This document shows positions 3,628-57,518 of a stretch of DNA of 64,000 bases, piece by piece (the first letter of the stretch is position 1; every line of letters begins with the position of its first letter). Source of the stretch: Naegleria lovaniensis (Eukaryota; Heterolobosea; Eutetramitea; Acrasida; Naegleriidae); the NCBI RefSeq assembly GCF_003324165.1, contig NW_025407830.1:124001-188000 (forward strand). The letters run 5' to 3'. Made by a program: the position numbers and the translations under genes. The notes below the pieces were generated by a model, which saw only the letters and a program-made list of their open reading frames with translations, had not been told where the DNA came from and did no database searches.

Positions 3628-4198
3628 AAAAGGCCAACTTTCAAGCATTGAACGTGATCAGAGACACAAACTAATCCAATACTTTCACCATTTAATATAA
3701 AATTTCACATGTTTGTCTTTGGCTATCTTAGTTATTACATCCTTATCAGATTGTGGGATGTTTTTTTTATAGCCCACAATACGAAGCCGTTCTATTGCTT
3801 TCATTTGAAGTGCCAACCTAATACTGTTGGCATTGAGATCAGAGCGTACTAAAGTGAGATCATTAATGCGAAGGTTTCCTTTTGAAAGAATTTTCATATC
3901 TGCATCAGTCACGTCGGTGAGTTCTAGTTTCAATGCATGTGGTAAATATGTTGAGGCAAAAATAGCCATGCCATCACTGGGTATTCTTTTGGTTAAAAAA
4001 AGATTCTTCAGATTTCTTAATTTCCCTTTTGCAAAATATTGTAGGTCAGATTTATCAATGATGAAACCAATTAAAGAAATATCTGTGAGACTTTCTATCA
4101 TAAATATATATTTTGCTCCTTCAAAATTAGATTCCCAACGACCAATGTGAAGAGTTGTTAAATGTTTCAGTTTGGTAAGGTATTTGATACTCGATCCA

Positions 4199-4202
4199 AT
4201 AT
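4199..4202. repeat. Target site duplication ATAT, left flank of copy 1
   Basis: ATAT directly before the left terminal repeat, matched by ATAT at 6068-6071 after the right one. Collapsing the two to one rebuilds the host codons AAT ATT (Asn-Ile) in frame. Confidence 0.8.
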
Positions 4203-6067
4203 CCTCTACGCGACGGCAACTTTAGCTGGCAAGTAATACATAAACCTACTTCTGTTCTCTCCTTATGTGATATCATTCTCTTCTATTGTTTGCTAAGATA
4301 TCGTTTATGCATTTGTTGTGGACTTTTAATGTGATTGGATGGCAATAAAAGGAAAATGCCGCCAACACCCCTTTTTTACCGTTATCAAAAAAAAGTCAAC
4401 ATCATTAAGTAGAGGTATTATAATTCAACAACGGCACCCTATGACCGATAAACAACCTTCTGATGTCACCATAGACTTGATAAACCAGGTGATAGAAACA
4501 AACTCTGGTAGAGGGTTTGGTCCTGGACATTTTGAAGGCTTTCAAAACGATTCCGAACACAATTCTTTTGGGTGTCAAGGACATGGAAACCACTTGAACA
4601 GTCTTACACCTGTTCGTTGTGTTGAGCAATACTTGCCTGATCATTTGATAAAACATATTATTCACTTGTCCAATGATCCAACTATTCCTTGTACTACTGA
4701 AGATCCTGAACCCTCAGACCATATCAAAGCTTGGTACACCTCGCCACCAGCTGATAATGAGCACAATGATGATGATTCACATGATGACGAAGACACTATC
4801 ATTCCATGTTCGAGTCAAGAATCTGAAGATGAACAGGATGACTCTTCCTCTACAACACACACAGCAAATATCACCGTGTCTGACCTATACCTATATTTGG
4901 CAACTGTTATTGCCATCATGCTTGCTCCTCAACCTGAGCTCACAGATTACTTCTCAACAAGTGTATTCTTTGGTAACGAATTCATAAAAAGTATTTGGAG
5001 TGGCAGAGATCATTTCCTTTCAGTTCATAGAAGTGTTCGTGTCAACCCCCACTATTTTACCAGAGTGTTCAATCAAATTTCTTTGATAATTTGGAAACCC
5101 TTCCCGAACGTCACAGTTGATGAAACATTGATACAATTCACGGGCAGATTTAAATTTAAACAACACATCAAAGGAAAACCTGAAGACACTGGTATTAAGT
5201 TTTATATGATGGCCGACGACTTGTGGTTCGTGATAAGATTGTGGCCTTACACAGGTCATCAACCACAAGTTCATATCTTAGTGATGGATTTTGTTTCCTT
5301 CTTACCTTCTCATGAGTACAATATTTGCACTGATTCCTACTTTGGCCACCACAAGACGGCCCTACTATTGAATTACCACAAATTCCGGTTTACGATGATT
5401 TGTCCCAAAAACAGATTAGAAGAAGAATGCAAAAACTTACTCTCAAGGTATACATTATCAAAAGGTGAATGGATTGGTGTCACTAATGGAGATTATGTCG
5501 CAATTCATTACAAAGACAAAAAACAAATTACTTTTCTTTCCAACATGGTTACTTTGAAGAAAAGCAAGAACAAGAAGAAAGGAGCTCCTAAAGTAAAAGA
5601 GCTCTATGAGAAGAAGCATGTGAACGTAGATGTGGCTGATAGATATGCACATATGTATCCCGGTTGCCATCGGGTCAACAAGTGGACTCAAGCAGCATGG
5701 ATGGGAATTTTCCGAATTGTACTCGCAAATTCATGGATTTTCTATAAGAAAGCCAAAAACACTGATATTGATTACAAATCATTCCTGATGAGAGTGGCTG
5801 TCGGATTTGCCCAAAAAGCAGGTGCTGATCTTGATGATGAAGGAAAAAAACTATATGATGTTCATATGATTCAAAGAGTGCATGATCGTCATGGCCATCA
5901 TTGCCATCATTGCAATAAGTATCCAACACACACAAAGTGCTCACAATGTGATGAGTGGGTATGTGAGCAATGTGTTAATTGTGGTTGCCAGAATCCAAAA
6001 CGATCACACACAAAATAACACCAATAAATTCGTTTTTACATATTTTTTTTCATCCGTCGCGTAGAGG
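4203..6067 (+). mobile_element. piggyBac-like DNA transposon, copy 1 (complete)
   Basis: Element of 1865 bp with perfect 14-bp terminal inverted repeats (CCTCTACGCGACGG at the left end, its reverse complement at the right). It is flanked on both sides by ATAT (4199-4202 and 6068-6071). Classical piggyBac uses TTAA; here the four-base palindrome is ATAT. Because ATAT is palindromic, flank and terminal repeat could be divided slightly differently, but only loss of a net four bases restores the host reading frame. One transposase gene fills most of the element. An AATAAA-like signal lies just after its stop near 6022. The copy looks intact and recent. Confidence 0.93.
4339..6018 (+). CDS. piggyBac-like transposase (DDE_Tnp_1_7 family)
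   Basis: A 559-residue protein that would cut and paste the surrounding element. The catalytic aspartates of the family can be matched: D261 in TVDETL, D332 in CTDSYF, D431 and D434 in VNVDVADRY, with the same three-residue spacing between the last two as in insect piggyBac. The final Asp block is followed by a conserved RVNKWTQAAW segment. An acidic low-complexity stretch lies near residues 137-170. The C-terminus is a Cys/His-rich zinc-binding tail (from HHCHHC to VCEQCVNCGC), as in the family. There are no breaks, so an active enzyme is plausible. The start is the first ATG after the left end. Confidence 0.93.
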   Translation: MAIKGKCRQHPFFTVIKKKSTSLSRGIIIQQRHPMTDKQPSDVTIDLINQVIETNSGRGFGPGHFEGFQNDSEHNSFGCQGHGNHLNSLTPVRCVEQYLPDHLIKHIIHLSNDPTIPCTTEDPEPSDHIKAWYTSPPADNEHNDDDSHDDEDTIIPCSSQESEDEQDDSSSTTHTANITVSDLYLYLATVIAIMLAPQPELTDYFSTSVFFGNEFIKSIWSGRDHFLSVHRSVRVNPHYFTRVFNQISLIIWKPFPNVTVDETLIQFTGRFKFKQHIKGKPEDTGIKFYMMADDLWFVIRLWPYTGHQPQVHILVMDFVSFLPSHEYNICTDSYFGHHKTALLLNYHKFRFTMICPKNRLEEECKNLLSRYTLSKGEWIGVTNGDYVAIHYKDKKQITFLSNMVTLKKSKNKKKGAPKVKELYEKKHVNVDVADRYAHMYPGCHRVNKWTQAAWMGIFRIVLANSWIFYKKAKNTDIDYKSFLMRVAVGFAQKAGADLDDEGKKLYDVHMIQRVHDRHGHHCHHCNKYPTHTKCSQCDEWVCEQCVNCGCQNPKRSHTK

Positions 6068-7302
6068 ATATTACATCCTCTGATATCAAGTGTTATCAGA
6101 TTTGAAAATTTATCACAAAACAATTCCAGTGAGGTTGTGTCAATATTTCCACTAAATACTTGGAATGACCTTAAATCATCTATCGTATCAAATATGTTCA
6201 TGATATGACTACTGTTACAAAATAGTAGACCTAAATGTTGTGTATTGTTGGATGTAAGGTATCTCAAAACATTATCAGTGATTTGATTTTTAACATCTTT
6301 AGAAGGCCTGAAGAAACAGTCAAATGAGGATGTAGAGATGATTACTTCTTGGAGAGATGGAATTTTGTCAAGTAAGGAAAATTGAGATCCATTTTGTAAC
6401 AGATTAGCAAATCTCTCAGTTATATGAAATTTTAGAGTATTAAATTGAATTCCACTATTAAGTATTCTCTTTAAGCTCATCATATCCAAGTCAATCTTTT
6501 TTAGTTCAAGGCTACGTAACCATGGAAATCTTGAAGGATCGAAATCGTTAACATTCACAATCTCAATATTCGAGCGCGAGCGAGGGATGCCTAGGATTTC
6601 TGTTTGCCTAAACACATGTTCTATAGAAAGTTCTTTCAAATTTGAAAGACATGTATTTGGTTGAAATAATTTGCTGATACCCTTACTTGTAAATCGACTG
6701 TTGCATATAAACAATGATTCTAACCTTTCTGATAATGGACTGGATAATATTATTTTGATCAATTTATCACCGTTACAATGGTTGTAGTCGAGTTTTAAGT
6801 GTTTTAGTGAAGGAAAGTCTTTTGAGATAGATTTTACATCATTCAACGATAGTTTCAGATGGTGTAGATTGAGCTCTGTCAATGAAGCATTGGAAATGAA
6901 CGGAATAGATGGCACATCATACAGTGTTAATGTTGTTATTTTAGGTGATGTAAAAATGGAATGAAAGTGAAACTTTTTAACTACAGAACTCTCAATGTAT
7001 ACCTTGTCGAAAAACAAGAACACATCTCCGAATTTGTTTGGTAGTTTTGATGAATACGAGCCAAAACGTTCGAACATTCTTCGAAATGTAATACCATCAG
7101 GCCGTGATGACTTGACAATGCTTCTCCATGATGAACAAACACCAGCAAATTTAATAATATCCTCTTGATTTAAATATGAAATAATATGATAATTGATGAT
7201 GTTTGTGTCAAAGATGGAGTGGTTGTGATTCTTTTCGGATACTTCAATATATTCTTTGGTGAGAAAGAAACAATGGAATAAATTCATTTTTTCTGTGGTT
7301 AG

Positions 7303-7895
7303 TTGCCCGCGATAGCTCGGTTGGCACAACATTTCAATCATTACATATTTCAACAAGAGGTGGGAGCACAACATGTAATCAAAATGAATCCAAAAAATTT
7401 TACTAATTTGCAGATACAACAACTCCTCCAACAACAAAACAATATGGCAGCCTTGGAATTGATTAAAACAACAAGACAAGCTCCATACAGAGTGAAGTAA
7501 AAACGGTATTTGGGAGAAATATATTATTTCAAAGAGTCAATGACACAGTTTTGTAGATTGATTTGTTTTGAACGTAGTGAATAGCAGGTATATCCCTTTG
7601 CTTTGCTTAGGGACTTGCTTTCATTCAATAGTTTAGGTCTAATTTCTCATCAACAAGGTCATCAACCTCAAGACATAACTTCAACTCTACTCAATAAAGT
7701 CAAACGACAAAATATGCAGAAAATCCCTCAAAGAGGAAAATATTGGCGCATTTCCGTTTAAACTGACAATGATAAGCGTTTGCGACATTTTGCTTTCCAC
7801 AACCAAACCATTACTGAGAGACGAGTTCAACAATGGAACCTTACTGTTGAAAAAGAGAAAACCTCATTCCTTTGAATATTACCATGATTAGTCAA
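7303..7895. other. Gap with decayed coding fragments
   Basis: Between two F-box genes. On the plus strand a short frame ends at 7500 (…RQAPYRVK, stop) preceded by a 3' splice-like TTTACTAATTTGCAG near 7397. Further short coding-like pieces appear at about 7630-7760 and 7790-7875 (HFAFHNQTITERRVQQW) interrupted by stops. They may be remnants of one lost gene. I see no intact gene here. Confidence 0.35.
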
Positions 7896-9448
7896 TTACA
7901 TTATTATCTTCACCTGTTTCTTCTTCGAAAGCTTTTTAATCATCAGTGATCCAAGAAGCATTTTACGTGGTTTCCTTATGCATAATTCTTCTATGACACA
8001 GTTTTGGAGAATTGAAATTACTCCCTTATAATCTATACCTGCATCACGAACATTGAGTCTTTTTACAGTAATATAATTACCATTGTCAAAATGAATGGTT
8101 CCGTTATTACTAATGTTGTCATTGAGAGAAAGATACAACAAACGACGTTTGAATTTGGTACGCACCAAATATTCAAATCCAATGTAAGTGAAATTATTAG
8201 AATCTAGCATTAGTGTTTGAATGTTGTCCAAGTTATGATTTGATAAATATTTCAATCCTTCATCTCCAATTTCACAAGATGATAGATCAATGTATGTCAG
8301 ACTCTTCATGTGGAAAATATATTTACAGATCTCAGGTTGTATTTTACAGCTACTAAGGTCCAGTTGTGTCAAGTGTTGTAAATTGAATATATATTTTCCA
8401 CAATCTGTCATCATTGGGCTGCCAAAAAGATTCAATGATGTCAAACTAGTGAATTGATCAGAAAGTAGTTGAAATAAACTCAATGATGATACAATATTGT
8501 ATCAAGATAGGAAATTTTTACATATTCAATGTCTGTATTGAGTATTTGTTGAATAGTATCCACGTTGATGGTGTTGTTATAATGAAATAACCTGAGAGAG
8601 GGTATTTGATGAGCATGTGAAAAATCAAACTGATACCTTCCACCGATATTCCATATTCTCAGCAAGGTTAATTGAAGTCCATGATTGAATATTTTATCAA
8701 TCACTGAACGATGAAGTATTGCACAAATCTCCAATGATCTTAAATGAGGAAATTTGATCGTGTCGATATTACAACCAAGAACTTCGCCATTACTTTGAGC
8801 TATCGAAATTTTAAGACTATTCAGTGATGATTCAACATGAGGATTGAATACAATACTGAAACCTCTCAGAGGTATTACGTTGTCTACAATGGAAAGACTT
8901 TCTAATTTTAATGGTCCATTAACAATAAAATCAATGCAATCACAATCAATATTTGTGAATGATAAATGTAGTTTCTTCAAATTCTTCAACTCCACAAAAT
9001 GTTCAATAGTGTCAAGAGAGAGATTTATACGATGAATGGACAAAAATGAAAGTGTGTCAGAAGGAAAAAGAGTAAAATTTGTATATGATAGAGTCAATGA
9101 TGATAGTTTGGGAGATGTGAATATTGTTTTGAATTGTGATAAAGTTAAATGACAATCAGAGAATTCAAAATGTGAAAACATTGATAAAACTTGTTGATTA
9201 TCACTTTTGTGTTTGGTTTCCATTGGTATTTCCTTGTAGTGCTTTCTAGAATATAAAATATTGGAGAATTTACTCTCGGAAGATGAAATGACAATTCTTC
9301 TCCATGATGAACAAACACCAGCAAATCTGATGATTTCATTTTGATTTAAAAATGGAATGATGATGAAAGCAATATCATCAAAAGAAGAATCGAGGAGATG
9401 TTTGTATTTTGTGCTGCTCTTGCTCCAAAGAGGAAAGCATGGGCGCAT
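7896..9448 (-). pseudogene. F-box/leucine-rich-repeat gene with a frameshift
   Basis: Minus-strand gene starting with MRPCFPLW at 9448. It has an F-box (FLNQNEIIRFAGVCSSWRR) and then irregular leucine-rich repeats. The first frame ends at 8480; the repeats continue without loss of similarity in the next frame to 7896, where textbook LRR units appear (LTQLDLSSCKI, LTYIDLSSCEI). No intron-like signals are present at the junction near 8485, so the simplest reading is a single-base frameshift, either a pseudogene or a sequence error. If restored it would be about 515 residues. It is a tandem paralogue of the transposon-split gene next to it. Confidence 0.75.
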
Positions 9449-23021: not shown

Positions 23022-23025
23022 ATAT
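23022..23025. repeat. Target site duplication ATAT of copy 2
   Basis: ATAT before the terminal repeat, matched at 24891-24894 on the other side. Collapsing the pair gives host codons AAT ATG (Asn-Met) in frame. Confidence 0.8.
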
Positions 23026-24890
23026 CCTCTACGCGACGGATGAAAAAAAATATGTAAAAACGAATTTATTGGTGTTATTTTGTGTGTGATCGTTTTGGAT
23101 TCTGGCAACCACAATTAACACATTGCTCACATACCCACTCATCACATTGTGAGCACTTTGTGTGTGTTGGATACTTATTGCAATGATGGCAATGATGGCC
23201 ATGACGATCATGCACTCTTTGAATCATATGAACATCATATAGTTTTTTTCCTTCATCATCAAGATCAGCACCTGCTTTTTGGGCAAATCCGACAGCCACT
23301 CTCATCAGGAATGATTTGTAATCAATATCAGTGTTTTTGGCTTTCTTATAGAAAATCCATGAATTTGCGAGTACAATTCGGAAAATTCCCATCCATGCTG
23401 CTTGAGTCCACTTGTTGACCCGATGGCAACCGGGATACATATGTGCATATCTATCAGCCACATCTACGTTCACATGCTTCTTCTCATAGAGCTCTTTTAC
23501 TTTAGGAGCTCCTTTCTTCTTGTTCTTGCTTTTCTTCAAAGTAACCATGTTGGAAAGAAAAGTAATTTGTTTTTTGTCTTTGTAATGAATTGCGACATAA
23601 TCTCCATTAGTGACACCAATCCATTCACCTTTTGATAATGTATACCTTGAGAGTAAGTTTTTGCATTCTTCTTCTAATCTGTTTTTGGGACAAATCATCG
23701 TAAACCGGAATTTGTGGTAATTCAATAGTAGGGCCGTCTTGTGGTGGCCAAAGTAGGAATCAGTGCAAATATTGTACTCATGAGAAGGTAAGAAGGAAAC
23801 AAAATCCATCACTAAGATATGAACTTGTGGTTGATGACCTGTGTAAGGCCACAATCTTATCACGAACCACAAGTCGTCGGCCATCATATAAAACTTAATA
23901 CCAGTGTCTTCAGGTTTTCCTTTGATGTGTTGTTTAAATTTAAATCTGCCCGTGAATTGTATCAATGTTTCATCAACTGTGACGTTCGGGAAGGGTTTCC
24001 AAATTATCAAAGAAATTTGATTGAACACTCTGGTAAAATAGTGGGGGTTGACACGAACACTTCTATGAACTGAAAGGAAATGATCTCTGCCACTCCAAAT
24101 ACTTTTTATGAATTCGTTACCAAAGAATACACTTGTTGAGAAGTAATCTGTGAGCTCAGGTTGAGGAGCAAGCATGATGGCAATAACAGTTGCCAAATAT
24201 AGGTATAGGTCAGACACGGTGATATTTGCTGTGTGTGTTGTAGAGGAAGAGTCATCCTGTTCATCTTCAGATTCTTGACTCGAACATGGAATGATAGTGT
24301 CTTCGTCATCATGTGAATCATCATCATTGTGCTCATTATCAGCTGGTGGCGAGGTGTACCAAGCTTTGATATGGTCTGAGGGTTCAGGATCTTCAGTAGT
24401 ACAAGGAATAGTTGGATCATTGGACAAGTGAATAATATGTTTTATCAAATGATCAGGCAAGTATTGCTCAACACAACGAACAGGTGTAAGACTGTTCAAG
24501 TGGTTTCCATGTCCTTGACACCCAAAAGAATTGTGTTCGGAATCGTTTTGAAAGCCTTCAAAATGTCCAGGACCAAACCCTCTACCAGAGTTTGTTTCTA
24601 TCACCTGGTTTATCAAGTCTATGGTGACATCAGAAGGTTGTTTATCGGTCATAGGGTGCCGTTGTTGAATTATAATACCTCTACTTAATGATGTTGACTT
24701 TTTTTTGATAACGGTAAAAAAGGGGTGTTGGCGGCATTTTCCTTTTATTGCCATCCAATCACATTAAAAGTCCACAACAAATGCATAAACGATATCTTAG
24801 CAAACAATAGAAGAGAATGATATCACATAAGGAGAGAACAGAAGTAGGTTTATGTATTACTTGCCAGCTAAAGTTGCCGTCGCGTAGAGG
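23026..24890 (-). mobile_element. piggyBac-like DNA transposon, copy 2 (complete, inverted)
   Basis: Same 1865-bp length and same 14-bp terminal inverted repeats as the copy at 4203-6067, in the opposite orientation about 17 kb away. The first ~150 bases compared by eye are identical, and the transposase and every shadow frame translate identically, so the two copies are essentially or wholly identical. ATAT flanks both ends (23022-23025 and 24891-24894). The element lies in the same orientation as its host gene, whereas copy 1 is opposite to its host gene. Confidence 0.93.
23075..24754 (-). CDS. piggyBac-like transposase, copy 2
   Basis: A 559-residue transposase identical in translation to that at 4339-6018, with the same catalytic aspartates (261, 332, 431, 434) and Cys/His-rich tail. 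It is uninterrupted. Two identical intact genes in 20 kb imply recent movement of this family in the genome; either copy could supply enzyme for both. Confidence 0.93.
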   Translation of the reverse strand: MAIKGKCRQHPFFTVIKKKSTSLSRGIIIQQRHPMTDKQPSDVTIDLINQVIETNSGRGFGPGHFEGFQNDSEHNSFGCQGHGNHLNSLTPVRCVEQYLPDHLIKHIIHLSNDPTIPCTTEDPEPSDHIKAWYTSPPADNEHNDDDSHDDEDTIIPCSSQESEDEQDDSSSTTHTANITVSDLYLYLATVIAIMLAPQPELTDYFSTSVFFGNEFIKSIWSGRDHFLSVHRSVRVNPHYFTRVFNQISLIIWKPFPNVTVDETLIQFTGRFKFKQHIKGKPEDTGIKFYMMADDLWFVIRLWPYTGHQPQVHILVMDFVSFLPSHEYNICTDSYFGHHKTALLLNYHKFRFTMICPKNRLEEECKNLLSRYTLSKGEWIGVTNGDYVAIHYKDKKQITFLSNMVTLKKSKNKKKGAPKVKELYEKKHVNVDVADRYAHMYPGCHRVNKWTQAAWMGIFRIVLANSWIFYKKAKNTDIDYKSFLMRVAVGFAQKAGADLDDEGKKLYDVHMIQRVHDRHGHHCHHCNKYPTHTKCSQCDEWVCEQCVNCGCQNPKRSHTK

Positions 24891-26827
24891 ATATTCAATA
24901 AGATATTCTCCATTTCCTTGACACAATTCGCCAACTCTTCAATTCTTTCAAAAATATCATCTGAATTGACGTTGTTTCTATTCAAAGAAATATTAATCAT
25001 TTCTTCTGAATTATCTTGCAATGTCTCTAGTTCATGAACAATACAACTGGCTTTGTCAAATACTGCAAAGTTATGAGAGCTAACAAAGTTAAAAAAGATG
25101 TTCAATTGTTTTCTTCTCAGATCAATAATGTCTTTGAGAAATACTTTCATTCTTTCAAAATCAAAGACCTTAATATTTAAATTGAGCATTATTTCTGATA
25201 ACTGATGTTGTTTGGAAGCATCAATATTCTTAAAAGCACATAATTTGATCAAGTCCTGTCTCATTTCATCAATGCGATTTCTCATGTCAGGGTTGTCATG
25301 ATAAAGTTGATACCATGTATGAATCTTCTCAAAATATCTTAACTGAATGGTCTTGGCAACAATATTCTCATTTTTGGACAAGGTATTCCATGGAATGACT
25401 GAGTTCGATCGATGAAAACAATCACTTTCATTACCAACAGCAACCAGTTCCAAACAAGTCTTGAATCTGCATCGAGGGAATGAAAGATTCAGCTCATAGA
25501 GAAGACCATTCACAAACATGGGCCATGCTTCTTCAGAATGTAAAATGGTGATTTTACACAATTCAGAAGGTTCTGCTAGGGACTGATCTTGTGAGGAGTC
25601 AAGTAAATGAGGAGAAGATTTCTCATCAATATTGGCCTTGGAATTATGAAGAATAGATTCTGGCAAAGTGAGATATTTAAGGTTTGGAAAAGCTGTACAA
25701 AAGGCCTTAATTAAGGTTGACAATGGTAAACCTGGTTTCAATGACAATTGATAAATGGTAAGGGAAGAGATGTGAGAAAGTGGTTTGTTAATAACATCTC
25801 TCAATGTTTCTTGTTGACAGTTGCACAGACTTAAATGTTTGACACTATCGGGAATGGAACGAACGGAATTCAACTCAGGAATGGTTAAGGAAGTCAATTC
25901 TGACATGTGCTCAATTTTCAAAACATATTTAAAGGATCCAATGTTGTTGTTAAAATTCAGATTCGAGAAGAATGGACGCCACAACTTTAAACATTTCAAT
26001 TGAGCACCAAAAGATGGGTTTTCCAACTTTTTCAATTGATCTTCACTTAACAAATCATTACATTCGAACGATTCTAAATTCTTGGGAAAGTTGTCAACAA
26101 GCGAAAACAATGAAAGAGAATTATTTAAAATAACGCTTCTCCATCTTTCAGACGATACACGGACAAGGGTACTATTTCCATATGTGAATTGACAATTTTC
26201 AAACGTGAGACTTTGAATGTGGCTTCTTCTTCCCAACAAGTCACTAATGGATCGACTGCTCAAAGAGGTTCCAACAAGAGTCACTGAACGGAAAGCTTCA
26301 CACAATTGAATAGTTTTTGTATCAAGAGTCTTGCATACATTCATTTTCAACTTGGAATGACTTGTAATGTAATTTGAAAATTTTGGTTCACGATGATTGA
26401 CCATATAGTTCAACACAAAATCAACCAAACGTTTGGAAGTCACATTGAGTGATCGATCTTTCCACAATCGATGTTTGGACTCTTCACTCAAACATTCTCG
26501 AGCAATAATCTTGTTGCAACACCGTAACGTTGCCATAGTCTGTAAAAACTCATCGTCACCAATGAATTGTAAAATATGTTCCAACATGTCGAGAATTTCT
26601 AATGGATGAAGTATATGTGTGCGAGTTGGTGCAGTGCTACAACTTTTTGCAGCATCTATGGTTGACTCTAAATCTTGGCATGGATGATCATTGAAAATGC
26701 CACAGCCATCGGGAGAATGATCGGCGTGAGGTCTCTTGCCGCGAGAGGTGTAATAACCTTTTGGAATGATCGAATCGGAGCTTAACATTGGTTGTGGTGG
26801 TGTTGGATTGCGTGTCCATGAGGACAT

Positions 26828-30422: not shown

Positions 30423-33400
30423 ATGTCTGATCATCAACAGAAGCAGCAACAACCACCCTCCAACAACACCATTCGACCATCCATTCCAATCTCTTCAAAT
30501 AATGCCACTGGAAGCAAGAGAGGAGGTGTTTTAAAACATTCTCCACCAACTCCCACATCAACCTTTCAACAGCATTTTCCAACCACACCAACCTCGGCTA
30601 CACTTCGCAAGCCACCTCCATCTCCAATTCAGACACCGTCCTCTGGGAACAATAACAACATGTTTAATTTTCAACCTTCAGGCAACACATTTGTCAGTGG
30701 AGGTCATGTGATTGTTCCGAATCGAGCAGCAACAATAGCGAATACATCATCGTCGGTCCAAAATGCTGGAACTTCTTCTCGTTTTAGTTATGCATCCATC
30801 GTTACCAATAGTAGTATTACTAGCAGCAATAGTAGCAGCAATAGTATTACGAATGGCCTTAACAATAGCAACGTCACAGCACCCAATAGCAGTAGCGGAG
30901 CCATTTTGAGGGAGGACGATCTTGATGACTCAACCTCACTCTATTCCAAGTTTTCTCATAATCTTAATAGTAGCATGCATCAACAACCTTCCTCGTCGAA
31001 GGAAAGTACCGAGTTCACTCCTCCCAAACAAAAGAATTCGTCAACATTGGACAACAAATTGGAAATGTCACCACCACAACCCTCATTGGCATTACAGATA
31101 CACACCTCCTCAAACCCTCTTTCGACACCAACAGGAGAGAGAAAGAAAAAACTGAGGAAAAGCGGATCATCATCTTCAACAAATTTATTGTCAAATGCCA
31201 CAAATATTGGGAACAACATTCACAACAATGCTACAACAATTGAAAGTCCTTCATTTAATACTACAGATTTACAGCTCAAAAAAAAGAGTTCTATTACAGA
31301 TGTTGATTCCAATGATGAAGAGGAAGACGAGTTCATTTCGGTAGAGTCTCCAACATTTGCTCTGGCTCCCTCCGTTGTTAAGAAGCACAAGATGAAACAA
31401 CAAAAATTGGGTGGAGGCTCTCCACATCAAAATGAACAAAGCAATTTGGAGATTACGAACGATTTATTAACCTCTATTGAACAATCCATGGAGGACCTTC
31501 TCGATAGCGACAATGTCGAATATAATTTTCCTGGACAAATTTATGGAGGAGGTGTTGGATCTGACGGAGAAAATTCCACTCCTGTGACTACTCATGTTCA
31601 ACAACCAACATATAATCTACCTCCATTCATGTTCTCCTCCACTAACAGCAATAGCTCAATGAGATCGGGCCCTTTCCACTCGACCTTAGACCTTAACATT
31701 CCATACATTTACACTACAAGCGAGGAAGAGATTGAGATTTCTACTAATGGCTCAATCTCTACAAACACAACAAGCACTTCATTGGAGGATTTTCAAAGCG
31801 GGTTTATTGGCTCAATCACTCCAACAACCAATGTCATTATTCAGTCACCAAATAACAAAAACGCAACTCCTTACACTAACAATCAAGCAAGAAGCGAATC
31901 CAATCGTGGAGAGAATCGTTCAACACCACCAACATCTCCTGGGTCTCCTGTAGAGAATAAGAATTTGGCTGCTTTCAACAAGGAACGTACAGGAGTGCAC
32001 GCATCTCCAACAAGTAAAACCCTACCCAAGGTAAAATCAAAGGCCGTTCTAGAGTATGAAGACGATGTCACATCTGATTCATCTGATTCCTCCACAGATG
32101 AAGAGATATTTTCGCAAGAGAGAGCAAACACCAATGGAGTCAACTTGATTGACTATTCTCAATGCCCAACACTGCAAGATATGAATCAGCTTTTTGAAAA
32201 AACGATGGAGGAATATGAATATGAAAAGAAGTTGGGATCTGAAGCACAACTTTTCATTACAAATGCTCCAAGCTTTCAATCTCTGCTGTTTGCATTGAAG
32301 AAATTGAAAGATCAATCCCTGTTGCATCACGAAAACTCCTCTAAGATTAGATCTAACATTTTTCAAACATTGAAGCGGAAAATCAAGGAATTGAACAACA
32401 AATATCAAATGCAAAGCATTGGAGTGATCTCAAGTATTAATTCCAGGAAGGAATTGGATACAGTGTTTGACATTTGTAACTTTTTACTCAATGAGGATAT
32501 CATCTACAGCATGATTCAATCTCCTATTCTATCAGATATTAATTCCGAAAAAGATTTGGAAAATATGGCAACTCTTTTAGAGAATATTCAATCGAAAATG
32601 AATGTATCCTTTAACAACTCAGTACAGGGTTACTTTAGATTATTTGACGGAACAAAGAAATGGCTCATACACGTTTTTACACACAACTTGCGAATAGTAT
32701 TTGATTTACAGTCTTCAGGAACTTTACCTTCGAACCAAGCAAGAAGATCTTCAACATCGCTCCTGTCTCTACTTCAGAGCCAGCAGAATTCTATATCCCT
32801 AGAGAAATTTATGAAATTTCTGGATAGACTTGTGAGGTTAAATTTTCTAAACGAGTATTCTCATGTACTTCTTGACGAGTTGATGTTGACACCATTTTTT
32901 GTTTCCTTGACAGCTTTCGACTTTATAGAGCATATGGGAAAATTCAGTGGGGCCCAATTTTCTGACAAGTTGCGATCCTATATCATTGAAAAATGTTGCC
33001 AGTTAATTTCTCAAACAGCAACAAGCAAGGATACCAGCCTTCTTTTTGAACTGATTGAATCTAAAATTGAAGATGAAACAGTACGCTTTGTATATCTCAG
33101 AACATTACTATTTGCAGCCAATATTCAGCACAATTATGAAAATATTGTCAAAAATCCATTGTGCTATTATTATTTCAAATTTGCCAAGATCAGTCAAAAG
33201 ATTTCTGATGAAAACTATGCAAAAATTGAGAAGGAAGTATCAGAGTTGATGGATATTTATTTCAAGCTAGTTTTTCAGCTCTTAGACAAAACTTGTACCA
33301 TCTCTACTTTGAACATGGTTCTAAAACATGAGAGTCAATTCACTAAGCTTGTTTATGTTATGGGAGATGTTGGATTTAACGAGGGTCATCTAAAGCAACT

Positions 33401-36400
33401 TCGTCAAGAGCTGATTTCATTCAAAACAACTCTAGATGCTGTTCAAAATTTCCTGACCATGTTTGCGGATGATCCTAACTTCTTTGATACAAATACTGTA
33501 CTCGATACTATTATCAAAATTCGTAGAAATATGACGGAAATGGTTCTCAAAAAAGTCCAAAAGCAAGTATCGGATTTAATTCCATTCAGCTTTGAGGATT
33601 TGGCCTTCTTTTACGAGCTTCGAACATCAGAGTTCTTTTTGGTATTATGGAGAGATCTTTATTCAAAGAACACAAACGAAAAATATAGTATTGATTCTAT
33701 CAAGACCAAGCTCATACCTGCGGTCAGAAAAAGATGGAGCGAGTATTACATTTCACTCGATAACCTTTCCATGAAGTTAAGCGAATTTTATAGCATTCTA
33801 AGGAAATGTAGATATGATACCAAACTTGATAACATCTTTTCAGGTGCAAGCAGTCTTTATGAAGACGAGTTGATGAGAGTGAGAATGACTTTCAGCGGAA
33901 AAGCTTCAGACAAAAAACCTTCTAAAGAGGATCTTGAATGGGTTTCAAAGAGGCACAACATCATTAGAAGCTTTGAAAGTATTAATTTATACAGATCATA
34001 TTTGCCAGCACTGATTGCACTTGTGGAGCATTTTGAGCCAAACTTTTCTGTTGATTTGAAAAAAGATCCAGATTACATTCAACTCAAAAAGGAGGCAACC
34101 ATCTTGACTAGTCAGAGTTTGTGGGAAGAGCAAACTTTATCCATGTTTGAGAACCAAAGAACAAGCCTTGATTCATTATCTTTCGCCAAATTTTTTAAGA
34201 ATTTTTCCGATAATCAAATGTCATTTATGAAATTACTGAGTGACAACAGTGGGTTTTCCATCATTGATTGGCTTGCTAGCTACAAATCGAATCTGGAGTT
34301 TGATAACCTGTTAGAGGTGTGCAAGAGTTACACTGACTCTGTCAAAGTTCTTCAATCATTGAAATCTTTGGTTGTAATACGAGATGCTCTTTCGGAGTTG
34401 CTATACTCTGTAGAGTCTACTGCTATTAATTTCACTTGTTTTACACATTTTCACAGTGTATTGACTAAACTTCCGATTGGAAGTGATGAATTGGTACAGC
34501 TGACAAACCTCAAAAAGAACTTCACTCTCCTTCTTGAAATGTTTGAAGAAAGAACGCGAACTGGAGGAGTTCAAGCTCTTTATGATCTTGCTGCCATAAT
34601 TGAAAGAGGTATCTTTGAGTTCAGTCTTGCTTCTCAGAACGTAATTAGTTGCAAAGTGATACCTTCTTCAAGCATGTCATCCTCGTCACCAAGCAGAAGA
34701 ATGAGCAATCAACATCAAATCATCAGCATGGAGGGACTAGTGGAGTTGAGAAACAAGTTGATGTTGAGTGAAATACCAGATAATATTAACAGCTTAGACG
34801 ACGTGCATTCAAAGATCAAACTATTTGTGAGCTATATTACTTTAATGCTTGAGCTAAGGTCATCATTGCTCGAGCTATGTCGATTTGCTCATTTTGACTT
34901 TCAAGATAATTACTTTAAAACAGTTAAGGCTTCAGAATGCACTTTCGATTCCATCCAAGAGTATCATTTGGAGGTTCTGAAAAAGATGGAAGAATGGAAA
35001 AAAATTGTCGATGATTCCCGAAACAAATACTATTTCATTAATCTCTTTAGATCGAAAGAGTCTCTACATATCTTTAATTTGCTGACCAGATACAAGGAAG
35101 ATACCAGACATGATATATTGCGAGAGTTATTAGACATTTTGCAATTGGGTGACCATAGCTTGACTATTAATGAAATTGAATCTTGTATCAACGAAATGCA
35201 AGACTTTACATTCTCCAAAGAACTGAGTGTAGCCACAAAGATGGAAAAATTATGCCTATTTATCGAAGCTTTATTCCGTAATAGAAAGGTACCATATCGT
35301 AGAGCTGATTATTCTATTCCATCAACAGTTGTATCCAAGTACTCAGTCAGCAACTTGGGAGGTTTCTTTAGGATTATAAAGCTGAGCAAGGAAAAAGAGG
35401 TCATGGAAGCCATTTTGACCATTTATTCAACTCAAAACAGACTTCCTTTGAGTGAAGAGGTTTTACTTTGCAACTCTTATGAGACAGATATTGAAGACAT
35501 TTATCTCATTCTAAATAGATGGTTCAAGTCTAGTGCAAATGGAAAAATCAACCATATATTTTGTATTGGCAATATCCACGAGTTACAATTTTCTGTTCAG
35601 TCAAAGATGCTATTACGTATTCAAGAGCAATTATCAATCATGGCTAAAGCATCAAGTAATCATGCCAAGCTGGTACTACTTAGTGGAGCAGATAGCAATT
35701 CTAGACTCTTAGTAGAGTTTTCGCAATATGTAGATGTGAATTTCAAAATTCTTCCTCACAAGTACATTTCAGCGATTCTCAACTCGTATCATGGTAATCG
35801 TGTGAAATATGTGTACTCAAATCGTACAGCCGCCGGAAAAACTCGCTACATACTTAAAGATATTTACATGAGCAAGAAAGGATATAAAAGAATTACAATA
35901 CTTGAAGACTCAACCGTAAGAGATACGGTATTTACTCTTAAAAGAACATTGAACAGTATGGACAGAAAAGACGTTGCTTTTCACTTTTCTTTATGCCCAC
36001 TTATTCCAAAGCACTTTAACTCGCTGTTCTTCGAATTGTTTTATTTGGGGAGAGTTAGAGATCGTGATACAGCGACTGTGTTCCATTTAACACCTTCCAC
36101 CCAATTCTACATTGAAATGCCAAACAGTCTTTGTGTACCTATTTTGAACGAATTTGTCTATTTTTGTGCCTATTTGCCTTCACTGGAAATTACTACAGAC
36201 GAAAATAGCTTTGATTTAACAATCTATGAGCTAACTAATAGCATCGAGGACGCTGTAGAAATTATTACTAGAAACAACTCGAAGAAGGTACAATTTGTCT
36301 GCAAGTTTTTAAAAGCATTTGAGGAAAACGTTTTCAAAAATGCTGCTCCTCATATTGCTGATTTTTCTCCTGATAAGCAATCTGACCTTGATACCAGAAA

Positions 36401-39400
36401 ATGCTTCAAACTTCTTTGCAAATATACCGGATTCAGTTTGGAGAATGCTTCCTTCTCTGTGATCAATCATTTTGTAGGTAAGTTATCTTCCGACTTTTTT
36501 TCTATTGTAACATCAATATTATGCAGAACTACTTTATGGGCAATTCCAATCCACTCTTAGATATGCATGCTTTAAAAATTGTGTCATGGAAGGAACCATG
36601 CAACTTTTTAAGCATGCAATGATCGACTTGATGATTAGATCTGCAAGAGATTTGACAGGTATTGCAGTTGAAAAAGATGCAATTTTGTCCATGGCTAAGA
36701 AATATGAAGGTAAACCGTATACCGAGGTTCTTCTATTACAATATATTGAAATGTTTGAAAACAGAATAGGTCGTTTGGAAGAACAGTCTGCTCAGCACCC
36801 GCTGGTTGCATTCTATCGGACCGAATTGGATGAGATTACAGGTATTGACCTTATTGGAATGGACACCGACAAGTTGGATCTAAACGAAGAATTGAAATAC
36901 TCTCTGATGTGCAATGGAATTAATTTGGATGCTCCTCGAGCACTTTCGCATGAAAGAGCTCAAGAAATTATTAGAAATGTAGCAGGACTAGGTAAAGAGG
37001 ATAAAAACGAGAAAATTAGAAACAATTACGTATTAACAGTTGACAATTTGAGCAAAGTGCTCATTATTTACAACAAGCTCAAGTACAATCTACCAGCAAT
37101 TTTGTACGGTGATAACGGAGTAGGAAAATCAGAGTTAACTAAATATTTAAGCACCGTGCTAGGAATTAAGTTGAAACGATTCGTTGTTAATGAAGGCCAC
37201 AGTAGCTCAGACATTTTGAACTGGATCAGTCCTCTCATAAGAGAGGCCAATCATAACCCTTCCAGGGATGTTATAGCATTCTTTGATAGGGTGAATACGG
37301 CAAACATGATGGGATTATTTAAAGAGATAATATGTGACAAAATTATCAATAACCAAGTACTTCCCAAGAATCTGAAAATTGTTGCCTCTTGTAATCCATA
37401 CCGTCTGAGAAGATATTCTGGAACAGACATAGAACAACCTTCTTCTCAAAGGCTTGATATCCTGAAAGAGAATTTACGAAATCTTCAAAGGACAACCACA
37501 CTTGACGTTCAAGCTTTTGCTCAATGCCTTGTTTACAAGGTTTATCCTCTTCCAGTTTCTTTGTTGGATTCCGTGTTTAGCTTTGGATCGCTTAAAAGTG
37601 ACATTGAACAGCTATACATACGTGCAATATTACTTATGGAAATTAATCAGGAGGATAATACTAGATCCGAAAGATTCTTTGATTGCTTTACCGAGCTAAT
37701 TTTCATATCCCAAAACTTTATTAGAAAAGTATACATGGAACGCAGCGCTGTAAACCTGAGGGATGTGAAAAGATGTATCAATTTGTTCAAGAGCTTTTAT
37801 CAGTCGCTTGCAAAACGAAACTCTTTAGATCCAGAATTTTATTTGGAGGATTCAAACTTCATCATTAAGAACTCAATACTACTTGCTCTTGGTAGCTGTT
37901 ACTATTATAGACTTACTGCTCGTAGAGAAGACTTTGTGACTGAGATTGAGAACTATCTTTCTTCAAACAAATACTTTTTATATCAAAAAGGTGATTTTAT
38001 CAATACACTCAACGAGGAGCAGAGATTTTATACCATGCATTTAAATATTCCAAAAGGTGTGGCACTTAATCAGGCTTTAAGAGAAAATATTTTCATGACA
38101 CTTGTTTGTGTCTTGAATAGAATTCCAATTTTTATCAACGGAAAAAGTGGAAGCTCCAAATCATTGTCGTTAGAAATTCTATCTTCAAACTTGAATGGAA
38201 GTGCGAGCGTGAACGCATTTTTGAAATCTCTGCCCTCTCTTGAAATATTCACATATCAGTGCTCGCAACTGTCAACACCTGAAGACGTGAAGAGTTGCTT
38301 TGAATCTGCGAGAAGATATCAGAAAAATTCTCCCAATTCCATTGCAGTGGTTCTCTTAAACGAAGTTGGACTCTTAGAGCATTCTCCGTCTCATCCATTG
38401 AAGGTGGTTAATAAGGAGCTCGATGAGGAGAGTTCAAATTATACACCCTCTGTCATTGGTCTTTCGAATTGGACTCTTGATCCCAATCTCATTAACAGGG
38501 CTGTTTATTTGTCACGACCAGCTCCCTCGACTTTTGAGTTGAAGACAACACTTTCTGGCATTGTCAATTCGGTACACTTGGATAGTAGTCTGTTTTCGTT
38601 AGCCAAGGCTTTCCATGACGTATACAACAGCCAACAAAGAAAAGATTTCTTTGGATTGCGAGACTTTTACCACTGTGTGAAATTTATCAACAGAAATTTT
38701 GATTTAGGAGCTCTGACACCAGAGCTTTTAACTGATGCTTTGACCCGTAATTTTGGTGGCTCTAGCAATGAAGAGTTTCATACCATTCTCAATATTTTCT
38801 TTTCATGTGTAGGAATGAACATCGTTCCGAATAGAAAGTTAAAATTAGAGTACATTTCAGACAATTTGACCGATACAAAAGCTCGACATCTCATGCTTCT
38901 TACTAAGAACAATGCTGCTCTTTCCATTTTATTTTCTGATTTTGGACAAATAATGCCATACTCTAACTCTGAGGTCATATTCGGCTCATCAAACTTCCAA
39001 AATTCCGCTAAAGAGCTTCAAATATGTATGGATATACAAAGAATTAAGCAGTGTATGGCTATTGGAAAAATAGTTGTACTCGTAAATTGTGAACAGCTCT
39101 ATGAGAGCTTGTACGATTTATTTAACTTGCAGTACATTGAATATGACGAGAATCGAGTTGTTGCAATCTCCTTGGGGACCTACAGCAGAATTTGTTCAGT
39201 TCACAAAAACTTTAGAGTCATTGTGATTGTAGATCAAGATGATGCATATACACGATTACCAAAACCACTGCTCAATCGATTTGAAAAACAGACACTTCAC
39301 AGAGAAGATTTATTCGACAAGCACTCCTCGGCCAATTTGCGAGCAGTGTTATCAAAGCTCCAGAGTTGGGTGAAATCAATATTTGACGAAGATGAAAGAC

Positions 39401-42400
39401 CATTTGTTAACACTCACAAATGTTTGCTTCATTCTTTGGTATTGTCATTGGACTCAAAACAAATGGAAGATAGTACACTGCACGACTTTCTCTTGAACCA
39501 ATGCAAGAATTTATTACTATGGATTACCACTACAGATGCTATAGTTAGAATGGCTTCAAAGAATTTAAGAAATAAGGAATATGCTAAAATGTATTTCGAG
39601 CAGCAAGAGCACAGAGATCTTTGTAAATTTTCTCAGTACTTGTTTGATGCCATAGAGTCACAACAAAAAAGTGGCTTGTTGAACCCACTGATTTTTACAG
39701 GATACTTCCAAGTCTGTGTGCTGACTTATTCGTCAGTCTCTGTTAACTGCAGCTCTCTACTCAGCGCTGATAGAGCCGAATACGTGGAAACGTTGTTTTT
39801 GAGCGACTTAAAATCAGATATTGAATTGTCAGAAAAGCTAAAGCAATACTTTGAAATGCCAGTTTCAACACAAAATTCTCAGCATGTCTTAATAATTCAA
39901 TGTGAGCTTGTGAATTTCGACTTGTTGAATCAAACCAAGTTTATGATTCAAAAACAAAGAAAATGCTCTGGTATACTCAATACTCAGGGAAAGAACGTAC
40001 TTTTAGTTGTTAATGTCATTCCAGGAAAGTCTAACACGACTCAGTATTTAATTGAATTCGATACCCCATGGAAATATGCTTTTATTGACGAAATTAGGCC
40101 AATGCAACATTCCATTTATGACATTTTGAATAGGCCATTCCCTGAACAGATACAACTAGCAAATGTTCGACAAATCATTAGCAACAATTTCAGAACAGCA
40201 TTGGCCATGTTAAGAAAAACAAATACCAAGATTAATGATATCACAGTTCTAATTTCGAGAACTAAAGAACTTCTCGACAATGAAGATTGTTGGAAAGTGA
40301 TTCAACCTAAAATCATGGAGATTTGTTTTGATTACTTTTCTCAGAATCAAACTAATTATTATTCGACCTTTGTTGCACAGCACATGCATGAATATTTTTT
40401 AGTAGCGAATACGTATTACTCGGCCATCCAATACTGCATTGAGAGAATATTAATCAAGTCATTCACATACCTTCTCGCAGAATTAGAGAGGAATAACAAT
40501 CTGGATTTATACTTTGAATTTAAGAAGGCAAATAGAACAGATGGAACAGCACTTTGGCTTCGACTTTTGAGCGATATGAAACGTCCATCCATTACAAACA
40601 TGTTTACTAAATATGATCAAGCAAACTCCTCCGCAGAATTGCTTCGTTGGAAACCCATAGAGGTAAGAAATGACGGAAATAATAACAGAATGTTCAAATG
40701 TCGATTCCCTTTTTCATTTGAAGTCTGTAGACACTTGCACAGCCTGAGAAGCATTTGTGAGAGCTCACGTTTTGGTGTTACAACAGCACTCCAAAATCAT
40801 ATCAACATGCTGTATCCATTCTTGAATAATTTGTCAAAAGAGTTTTCAGAATTCTTTATCTATGATTATATGTGCATGTTCGGAGAGCAATGCACAGTTC
40901 TCACAAATGAAGTACAGTATGAAATTCTCAAGAAAATGCTAGAAACAGAGCATAGCGAATCCAGCGATACAACTAGTCATATTGCTAACGCGCTTTCATT
41001 CTATTGGAAGCAAGAGAGAAGATTACAAGCTTATTATGTACTCTTTGAGACATTCCCCAAGTCTGTACTTCAAAAGAAATTCTTACAAAAGCTACTTGTA
41101 CCATCGTTGAGAGTGACATCAGTTGAGGAAATTGATATTCTACTATTCAGCGTGATTTATCATAATTTGGATCCAAGAAAAGTGGAGATTTCATACGATC
41201 CTGTTATCACAAAACAACGAAGAATGATTTGGGTGAAAACTTTGACAGACATCAAAGGTCCTGTTGAGGTCTTGACGAGTTTGATGCGCCTCACAAATTC
41301 TGGCTCTTCCATGCTTAATAATATTGGTTTTATTCATGAGAAATGGAGAAAACTACAATTCTACAAGGAGTATCTTCAAGAGATTGCTATTCCTTTAGGA
41401 ATTGTTAAAGATATATCCATGATTTTATGGCAAAATATGAAAACAAAGCCTCTCTCTTCGATGAACAGCTTGGAATTAATTCTATACTTTTTAGACTTGG
41501 TTAACAAAATTGGAGATAATCAAAAATCCACGACTGTTGACGCTAGAAAAGCCAATCTTTCGAGATTTTTTGAAATGTTTACCTCCAAGTTTCTTATCCG
41601 ACCAATTGGAAAAGATGATGAAATTGACAAATCATTTTACTCGGTCTTGGTTAGCATTGTGAAAGGAGATAATGAAAAGTTTAAACAGATTATGAAATAT
41701 CCAACCCAAAATCTAAAGGTTAGCATCTTGAAGAAGCTCCTTCTCAACAAACAAACAAAAGTGCTTGTGAATTCTGAGTTGAGAGAAATCATCAAACAGG
41801 AGCTGGGAATATCTACAACTGCATCGATCAATAGCTCAGCATCGCTCGATCAGAGCACATTTTACAGCTATTTGTGCATTTACGAATCGGTTCTTCAAAG
41901 TATTTCTGAGGAGCAAATTGCCAAGCTAATTTCCTCCATTTCAGATTCGTTCATTGATGTTCATACTTGGAAAGATATCATTAAGGAGGTACAATTACTG
42001 GCAGTGATTAGAATATCATTATCTTCGTTTGCAGACAGGTTAATTGCAGCATCTGAAAAAGGAGAATCCATACGAGCAATCATTGGATCTAACACCATCT
42101 ATCAGCAGTTATTGACCCTTCTCGATAAATCAAGTTTCAACTTCTTGAGATTGGTACTATTGAGATTGGTCGTAGAAAGAAAAGGAAGAGTCTTTTTACT
42201 GAAAACTTTCCGTTCCAAAGTTGCCGAGCATATTCCATGGATTTCTTCAGTGCTTCATGGGTTCAAATACACTGACAGCATCCCACAAAACGTCTTGATA
42301 CATGTATTGAATGGACTTGAAGAGATTGGAGCATGTGTGGACATGATTATGAGTTTACGACAACAGCAAGGAGACAACACCTCCAAGACAGAGTCCATTA

Positions 42401-50486: not shown

Positions 50487-50491
50487 TTTTT

Positions 50492-50584
50492 TTATTGATT
50501 TTGTAATGTACGGAGTGTTGCCAGCAATGTAGCTTACAAAATTTATGCGCAAAATTTATTGATTTTGTAATGTACGGAGTGTTG
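50492..50584. repeat. 29-bp direct repeat pair, 64-bp period
   Basis: TTATTGATTTTGTAATGTAC and the following nine bases (ending GAGTGTTG) occur at 50492-50520 and again at 50556-50584. The pair lies between the start of the F-box/ankyrin gene and the 3' end of the SAM-domain gene, so it is in leader or intergenic sequence. It looks like a local tandem duplication. Confidence 0.85.
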
Positions 50585-57335: not shown

Positions 57336-57339
57336 CTAT

Positions 57340-57417
57340 GAGCGAAGAAGGGCTTCGATCCCTTGGCCTTGCTGCTAAACAGGATTCGCAACGCTCTCCC
57401 ACCTGAGCTACTCCGCC
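57340..57417 (-). tRNA. tRNA-like gene, isotype uncertain (enlarged anticodon arm)
   Basis: On the minus strand 78 nt fold as a tRNA: acceptor GGCGGAG pairs with CTTCGCT (two G-U pairs), then TA, a D arm GCTC/GAGC, and a T arm AAGGG-ATCGAAG-CCCTT. The A box (TAGCTCAGGTGG) is canonical. A run of six T at 57330-57335 follows the 3' end by four bases, as expected for pol III. The anticodon arm is five or more nucleotides too long: TTGC pairs with GCAA around a 15-nt loop, or a stem with one mismatch presents CCT (Arg). It may hold a tiny intron or be a tRNA-like gene. Isotype is not assigned. Confidence 0.65.
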
Positions 57418-57518
57418 CAAAGAATATAACTCTAAACCAAGGTTGACTTTGGTTAGAACGTCATAAGGCATGTGGCACGGCAATCAAAATAAGCCCTCGT
57501 AATTACAAACCTAAAAAA

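What the first reader, a model, noticed from the sequence alone, without database searches (positions are those of the whole stretch)
4199..6071. piggyBac-like element with ATAT instead of TTAA target sites
Two intact copies share 14-bp terminal inverted repeats and a DDE_Tnp_1_7 transposase, yet both are flanked by ATAT. The host reading frame is rebuilt exactly only if element plus four bases is removed (578 and 714 codons, both multiples of three), which supports a true 4-bp duplication at ATAT. Classical piggyBac is strict for TTAA, so this may be a separate target-specificity subfamily.
Basis: partly seen in the sequence, partly recalled or inferred. Interest (0 to 1): 0.75.

Follow-up and report, generated by a model that had tools for sequence, protein, structure and literature searches.

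The report
piggyBac-like transposon inserted at ATAT
Two identical copies of a jumping gene related to piggyBac sit in this eukaryotic DNA at ATAT sites instead of the usual TTAA, which may mean its enzyme evolved a different landing-site preference, although two copies are too few to prove it.

Summary
Two copies (4203-6067, + strand; 23026-24890, - strand) are 1865 bp each and 100% identical. Both have perfect 14-bp inverted repeats (CCTCTACGCGACGG) and ATAT on both sides. Each carries an intact 559-aa DDE_Tnp_1_7 (piggyBac-type) transposase with the DDD triad. Each interrupts a host gene, and both reading frames are restored by removing element plus four bases (577 and 713 aa). For copy 1, a neighbouring element-free paralogue aligns straight across the insertion point, which makes the single-ATAT empty site more credible.

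ATAT is a palindrome next to both ends, so a 4-bp ATAT duplication and a 2-bp TA duplication (repeat one base longer) give the same empty site. Only the 4-bp stagger known for piggyBac enzymes favours ATAT. 'Strict for TTAA' is overstated: published elements use other NTAN sites, and ATAT is a documented minority site (2 of 21 in CsuPLE1). ATAT in 2 of 2 suggests altered specificity, but relaxed NTAN/WTAW targeting is not excluded (chance about 0.015-0.08). No host assembly or related element was available to count more copies.

Best reading: an apparently recently active piggyBac-superfamily family, probably with altered target preference.

The parts
4199..4202 (.). left ATAT flank of copy 1 (putative target-site duplication)
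4203..6067 (+). transposon copy 1, 1865 bp
4203..4216 (+). left TIR of copy 1, CCTCTACGCGACGG
4339..6018 (+). transposase ORF copy 1, 559 aa, DDE_Tnp_1_7; D261/D332/D431 triad plus D434
6054..6067 (-). right TIR of copy 1
6068..6071 (.). right ATAT flank of copy 1
23022..23025 (.). ATAT flank of copy 2 (low-coordinate side; element's right end)
23026..24890 (-). transposon copy 2, identical to copy 1, opposite orientation
23075..24754 (-). transposase ORF copy 2, identical 559 aa
24891..24894 (.). ATAT flank of copy 2 (high-coordinate side; element's left end)
3685..4202 (-). 3' part of the host F-box/LRR gene interrupted by copy 1 (ATAT at codons 406-407; joined ORF 577 aa)
   Evidence: start of span approximate, from the ORF list
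6068..7479 (-). 5' part of the host F-box/LRR gene interrupted by copy 1 (longest ORF start; the 577-aa reading begins at a later ATG)
7908..8624 (-). adjacent tandem paralogue of the copy 1 host gene, without the element; aligns across the insertion point
24891..26827 (-). 5' part of the host gene interrupted by copy 2 (joined ORF 713 aa; ATAT at codons 645-646)

Best explanation
This is an autonomous cut-and-paste DNA transposon of the piggyBac superfamily, apparently recently active, in a eukaryotic genome (short introns, F-box/LRR gene families; possibly Naegleria-like, not proven). By analogy with piggyBac, its DDD transposase would cut both ends with a 4-nt stagger through hairpin intermediates and insert the element into a 4-bp site centred on TA. 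In this family the site used is ATAT, which is duplicated (TIR 14 bp). Shown here: the element anatomy, the transposase family and triad, two independent insertions, ATAT on all four sides, restored host frames, and continuity of the copy 1 host gene with a paralogue. Inferred: a 4-bp ATAT duplication rather than a 2-bp TA duplication; hairpin excision; that the ATAT preference is a property of the enzyme rather than chance within relaxed NTAN targeting.
For: Two copies identical over 1865 bp with unrelated flanks show two recent transposition events. DDE_Tnp_1_7 E 2.8e-25; sequence similarity to solved piggyBat (2.5e-15) and piggyBac (4.2e-14) transposases. D268/D346/D447/D450 of piggyBac align to D261/D332/D431/D434. 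Host ORFs are restored at a residual of 4 bases (modulo 3) at both loci. An adjacent element-free paralogue aligns across the copy 1 insertion point with at most a one-residue gap nearby (score 130 vs shuffle maximum 72). The 4-bp stagger is dictated by the active-site positions in the piggyBac dimer (PMC7351741), and NTAN cleavage is known for PiggyMac (PMC3408717). Two of two ATAT: expected 0.015 if sites were random NTAN in this window and about 0.08 if random WTAW (from counts); about 0.009 at the CsuPLE1 rate of 2/21 (PMC4273485); about 2e-9 at the human-cell piggyBac rate of 1/23417 (PMC3499496). DNA-contact residues conserved between piggyBac and piggyBat (R275, Y283, K290, N440) are all replaced here (T268, H276, D283, E424).
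Against: Only two copies. Because ATAT is palindromic and present on both sides, a TA duplication with TIR TCCTCTACGCGACGG fits equally well. Loss of conserved residues is general in this diverged protein (29 of 72 piggyBac=piggyBat positions retained), so the contact-residue changes are suggestive, not significant. ATAT is also the commonest NTAN tetranucleotide in the host sequence (12.3%), so relaxed targeting is not excluded.
Confidence: 0.58

Rival explanations
1. A piggyBac-superfamily element with relaxed specificity: it needs only a central TA (NTAN or WTAW), and both copies happened to land on ATAT, the commonest such site in this AT-rich host.
For: ATAT is 12.3% of NTAN and 28% of WTAW tetranucleotides in the host part of the window. 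Pokey in Daphnia has 12% non-TTAA duplications with a constant middle TA (PMC3849761); CsuPLE1 has ATAT at 2 of 21 sites (PMC4273485); PiggyMac needs only a central TA (PMC3408717).
Against: The chance of two of two at ATAT is 0.015 (NTAN) to 0.08 (WTAW).
Confidence: 0.3
2. The duplication is the 2-bp TA inside ATAT and the TIR is 15 bp (TCCTCTACGCGACGG), with a target preference for A-TA-T, as in TA-duplicating transposons.
For: It gives the same empty sites and the same restored frames as the ATAT model; the two cannot be separated from these two loci (flank sequences; arithmetic).
Against: The transposase is piggyBac-type, for which the dimer geometry imposes a 4-bp offset (PMC7351741). With the 4-bp reading the repeat starts with CC, as piggyBac termini do (PMC2872659); with the 2-bp reading it would start with TCC.
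Confidence: 0.08
3. A TTAA-specific element whose flanks are mutated, or non-canonical rare insertions of an otherwise TTAA-specific family.
For: Non-canonical ATAT insertions exist, for instance one T. ni piggyBac line in Macrostomum (asymmetric TTAA/ATAT; PMC8717057).
Against: Eight matching substitutions would be needed around two otherwise identical 1865-bp copies. Two rare non-canonical events in two copies is very unlikely at published rates.
Confidence: 0.04

Closest known systems
piggyBac (Trichoplusia ni) and piggyBat transposases
   Same: DDE_Tnp_1_7 family, DDD triad plus fourth Asp, Trp449 equivalent to W465, Cys/His-rich C-terminus, short TIR starting CC, one-ORF element
   Different: ATAT instead of TTAA flanks; DNA-contact residues R275, Y283, K290 and N440 replaced; only 26-28% identity over the aligned core
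CsuPLE1 of Chilo suppressalis (PMC4273485)
   Same: piggyBac-like element; some insertions with ATAT duplications
   Different: ATAT is a minority there (2 of 21), TTAA the majority; different TIR
Pokey of Daphnia (PMC3849761)
   Same: piggyBac superfamily with non-TTAA duplications keeping the middle TA
   Different: 88% TTAA; no ATAT listed
PiggyMac of Paramecium (PMC3408717)
   Same: piggyBac-derived enzyme that cuts 4-base staggers centred on TA with free outer bases
   Different: domesticated excisase acting on IESs, not a mobile element with its own TIRs
PiggyBac-2_Cvir (PMC10813416)
   Same: piggyBac family reported with a non-TTAA duplication as its characteristic site
   Different: TATG, oyster; TIR not compared

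Membership tests
piggyBac superfamily | DDE_Tnp_1_7 transposase | tested here: met
   E 2.8e-25, 89.8 bits vs cut-off 22.4
piggyBac superfamily | DDD catalytic triad at the positions of D268, D346, D447 | tested here: met
   D261, D332, D431
piggyBac superfamily | C-terminal cysteine-rich zinc-binding domain | tested here: inconclusive
   Cys/His-rich stretch HGHHCHHC...CSQC...CEQCVNCGC near the C-terminus; only a weak Pfam match to the Siva family (E 0.0017, below the curated cut-off); single-sequence structure model too poor to use (pLDDT 34)
piggyBac superfamily | 12-19 bp TIRs with CC[C/T]T terminus (as stated in PMC2872659) | tested here: inconclusive
   14-bp TIR met; terminus CCTC fits CCY but not the fourth-position T
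piggyBac superfamily | 4-bp target-site duplication | tested here: inconclusive
   ATAT on both sides and frame restored, but a TA duplication gives the same picture
TTAA-specific piggyBac elements | TTAA target site | tested here: not met
   all four flanks are ATAT; so it is filed under the superfamily by its transposase, not as a TTAA-specific element
piggyBac superfamily | seamless excision through 4-nt hairpins | not testable with these tools
   needs biochemistry or empty alleles

The most novel reading that the evidence does not exclude
A piggyBac lineage in a protist whose transposase has switched its integration specificity from TTAA to ATAT, that is, swapped the outer T-A pair of the target tetranucleotide for A-T while keeping the central TA, with matching changes in the omega-loop residues that touch the target (Y283 to His, R275 to Thr, K290 to Asp).
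Probability: 0.45. Interest if true: 0.6.

Novelty: new variant of a known kind. Interest (0 to 1): 0.42.

Why it matters
In the piggyBac structures, target choice and seamless excision are coupled through the same melted tetranucleotide, and a hydrogen bond between the first T and last A is held responsible for the near-absolute TTAA rule (PMC7351741). A natural family fixed on ATAT would show that this rule can be rewritten while the 4-bp stagger stays. It would offer a natural comparison for the residues that set specificity, and possibly a genome-engineering enzyme with a different site.

Tried and rejected
No host genome is held, so copies could not be counted genome-wide. Relatives of the transposase: none in viral contigs by single sequence or by a three-sequence alignment with piggyBac and piggyBat cores, none in genome contigs, phages or plasmids. 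Exact left-end 24-mer: none in viral contigs or genome contigs. The 17-mer TATCCTCTACGCGACGG hit one viral contig (L001); the lack of a second TIR and of a transposase there indicates a chance match. A structure model from the single sequence was too poor (pLDDT 34), so no fold search was run. A scan of the window for other TIR pairs with matching 4-bp flanks found only these two credible elements; the other six hits are short pairs with no supporting feature. No paper in the held library was found that describes a piggyBac family with ATAT as its majority site. Sola elements with AT-rich 4-bp duplications were considered (PMC3627910) and rejected because the transposase is DDE_Tnp_1_7.

Full report
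What is there. The window carries two copies of one transposon, at 4203-6067 on the + strand and 23026-24890 on the - strand. The 14-bp terminal repeat CCTCTACGCGACGG occurs only at these four ends (expectation 0.05 in shuffled sequence). The two copies are identical over 1865 bp and lie in unrelated flanks, so they are separate and recent insertions. Each holds an intact ORF of 559 codons.

What the protein is. The protein matches Pfam DDE_Tnp_1_7, the piggyBac transposase family (E 2.8e-25), and is similar by sequence to the solved piggyBat and piggyBac transposases. The catalytic aspartates of piggyBac (D268, D346, D447, and the nearby D450) align with D261, D332, D431 and D434. The C-terminus is rich in Cys and His, as expected for the piggyBac zinc-binding end, but no Pfam model confirmed it firmly.

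Flanks and empty sites. All four flanks are ATAT. The copies interrupt two different host genes on the minus strand. The first host gene is an F-box/LRR gene. Directly upstream of it lies a paralogue without the element (alignment at window 8624 down to 7908), and it aligns with the rejoined protein across the insertion point (residue 406-407) with only a one-residue gap close by (score 130, best of 200 shuffles 72). So, for this copy, the single-ATAT empty site is supported by homology and not only by an open frame. The second gene had no paralogue in the window and rests on the frame alone.

What the frame test cannot do. Residuals of 1, 4 or 7 bases restore the frame alike. More important, ATAT reads the same on both strands and stands next to both ends. 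A duplication of ATAT with a 14-bp TIR and a duplication of only the central TA with a 15-bp TIR (TCCTC...GAGGA) therefore give exactly the same filled and empty sites. The choice of 4 bp rests on the enzyme family: in piggyBac the positions of the active sites in the dimer impose a 4-bp offset (PMC7351741), and the domesticated PiggyMac also makes 4-base cuts centred on TA (PMC3408717).

How unusual is ATAT. TTAA is the rule for piggyBac, but it is not absolute. In human cells 23,026 of 23,417 T. ni piggyBac insertions were at TTAA and one at ATAT (PMC3499496). Pokey has 88% TTAA, and its other duplications keep the middle TA (PMC3849761). CsuPLE1 of the rice stem borer has ATAT at 2 of 21 sites (PMC4273485). 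One Macrostomum line had an asymmetric TTAA/ATAT pair (PMC8717057). [quoted passage not shown] ATAT as such is therefore known as a minority site; no description of a family with ATAT as its main site was found in the held literature.

Is it specificity or chance. ATAT makes up 12.3% of NTAN and 28% of WTAW sites in the host part of the window. Two of two at ATAT then has a probability of about 0.015 or 0.08 under relaxed targeting, about 0.009 at the CsuPLE1 rate, and practically nil at the T. ni rate. This favours a real ATAT preference or a WTAW-type relaxation over a TTAA-specific enzyme, but two copies cannot separate the first two.

A possible structural reason. In the piggyBac structure the target is held by the omega loop (R275, Y283, K290) and by N440 and Y439, with Y283 stacking on the last A of TTAA and a hydrogen bond between the first T and last A (PMC7351741). 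R275, Y283, K290 and N440 are the same in piggyBat but are T268, H276, D283 and E424 here; Y439 is kept (Y423). In ATAT the outer pair is swapped, so a changed partner at the Y283 position is a sensible candidate. This is an inference: overall only 29 of 72 positions shared by piggyBac and piggyBat are kept, so the four changes are not statistically special, and the alignment in the R372-R376 loop is uncertain.

Limits. The host is not identified. Short introns, F-box/LRR families and 36% G+C would suit Naegleria, for which a piggyBac class has been tabulated (PMC6125883), but this was not tested. No whole genome was held, and no relative was found in the searchable collections, which are prokaryotic and viral. 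The decisive count of further copies could not be made.

Verdict. The element belongs to the piggyBac superfamily by its transposase and anatomy, but it fails the TTAA criterion at both loci. Altered target specificity is the leading reading, relaxed targeting the main rival. It is a new variant of a known kind, of moderate interest.

Noticed in passing
window 3685-9448, - strand: Tandem pair of related F-box/LRR genes; one is interrupted by copy 1 and the other is uninterrupted by the element, but its two halves are in different frames (around 8480), suggesting an intron, a frameshift or a pseudogene.
   Followed up: partly
window 47784-50552, - strand: One 922-aa ORF combines F-box-like, ankyrin and core-histone-fold Pfam matches.
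   Followed up: no
window 30423-36560 and 36586-45264, + strand: Two adjacent very long uninterrupted ORFs (2045 and 2892 aa); the first has no Pfam match and the second was not scanned.
   Followed up: no
window 57339-57418, - strand: ARAGORN reports a tRNA-like gene with a four-base anticodon (cctg) and no assigned amino acid; no Rfam family reaches its threshold anywhere in the window, so it is probably spurious.
   Followed up: partly
window 4203-4216 and the other three element ends: The TIR is strikingly CpG-rich (CTACGCGACGG) for a 36% G+C host, where CGCG occurs only 10 times in the 60-kb host part.
   Followed up: no
both insertion points (4199-4202 and 24891-24894): Both elements entered the same codon phase of host genes (AAT-ATK), at Asn codons 406 and 645; perhaps chance.
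   Followed up: no
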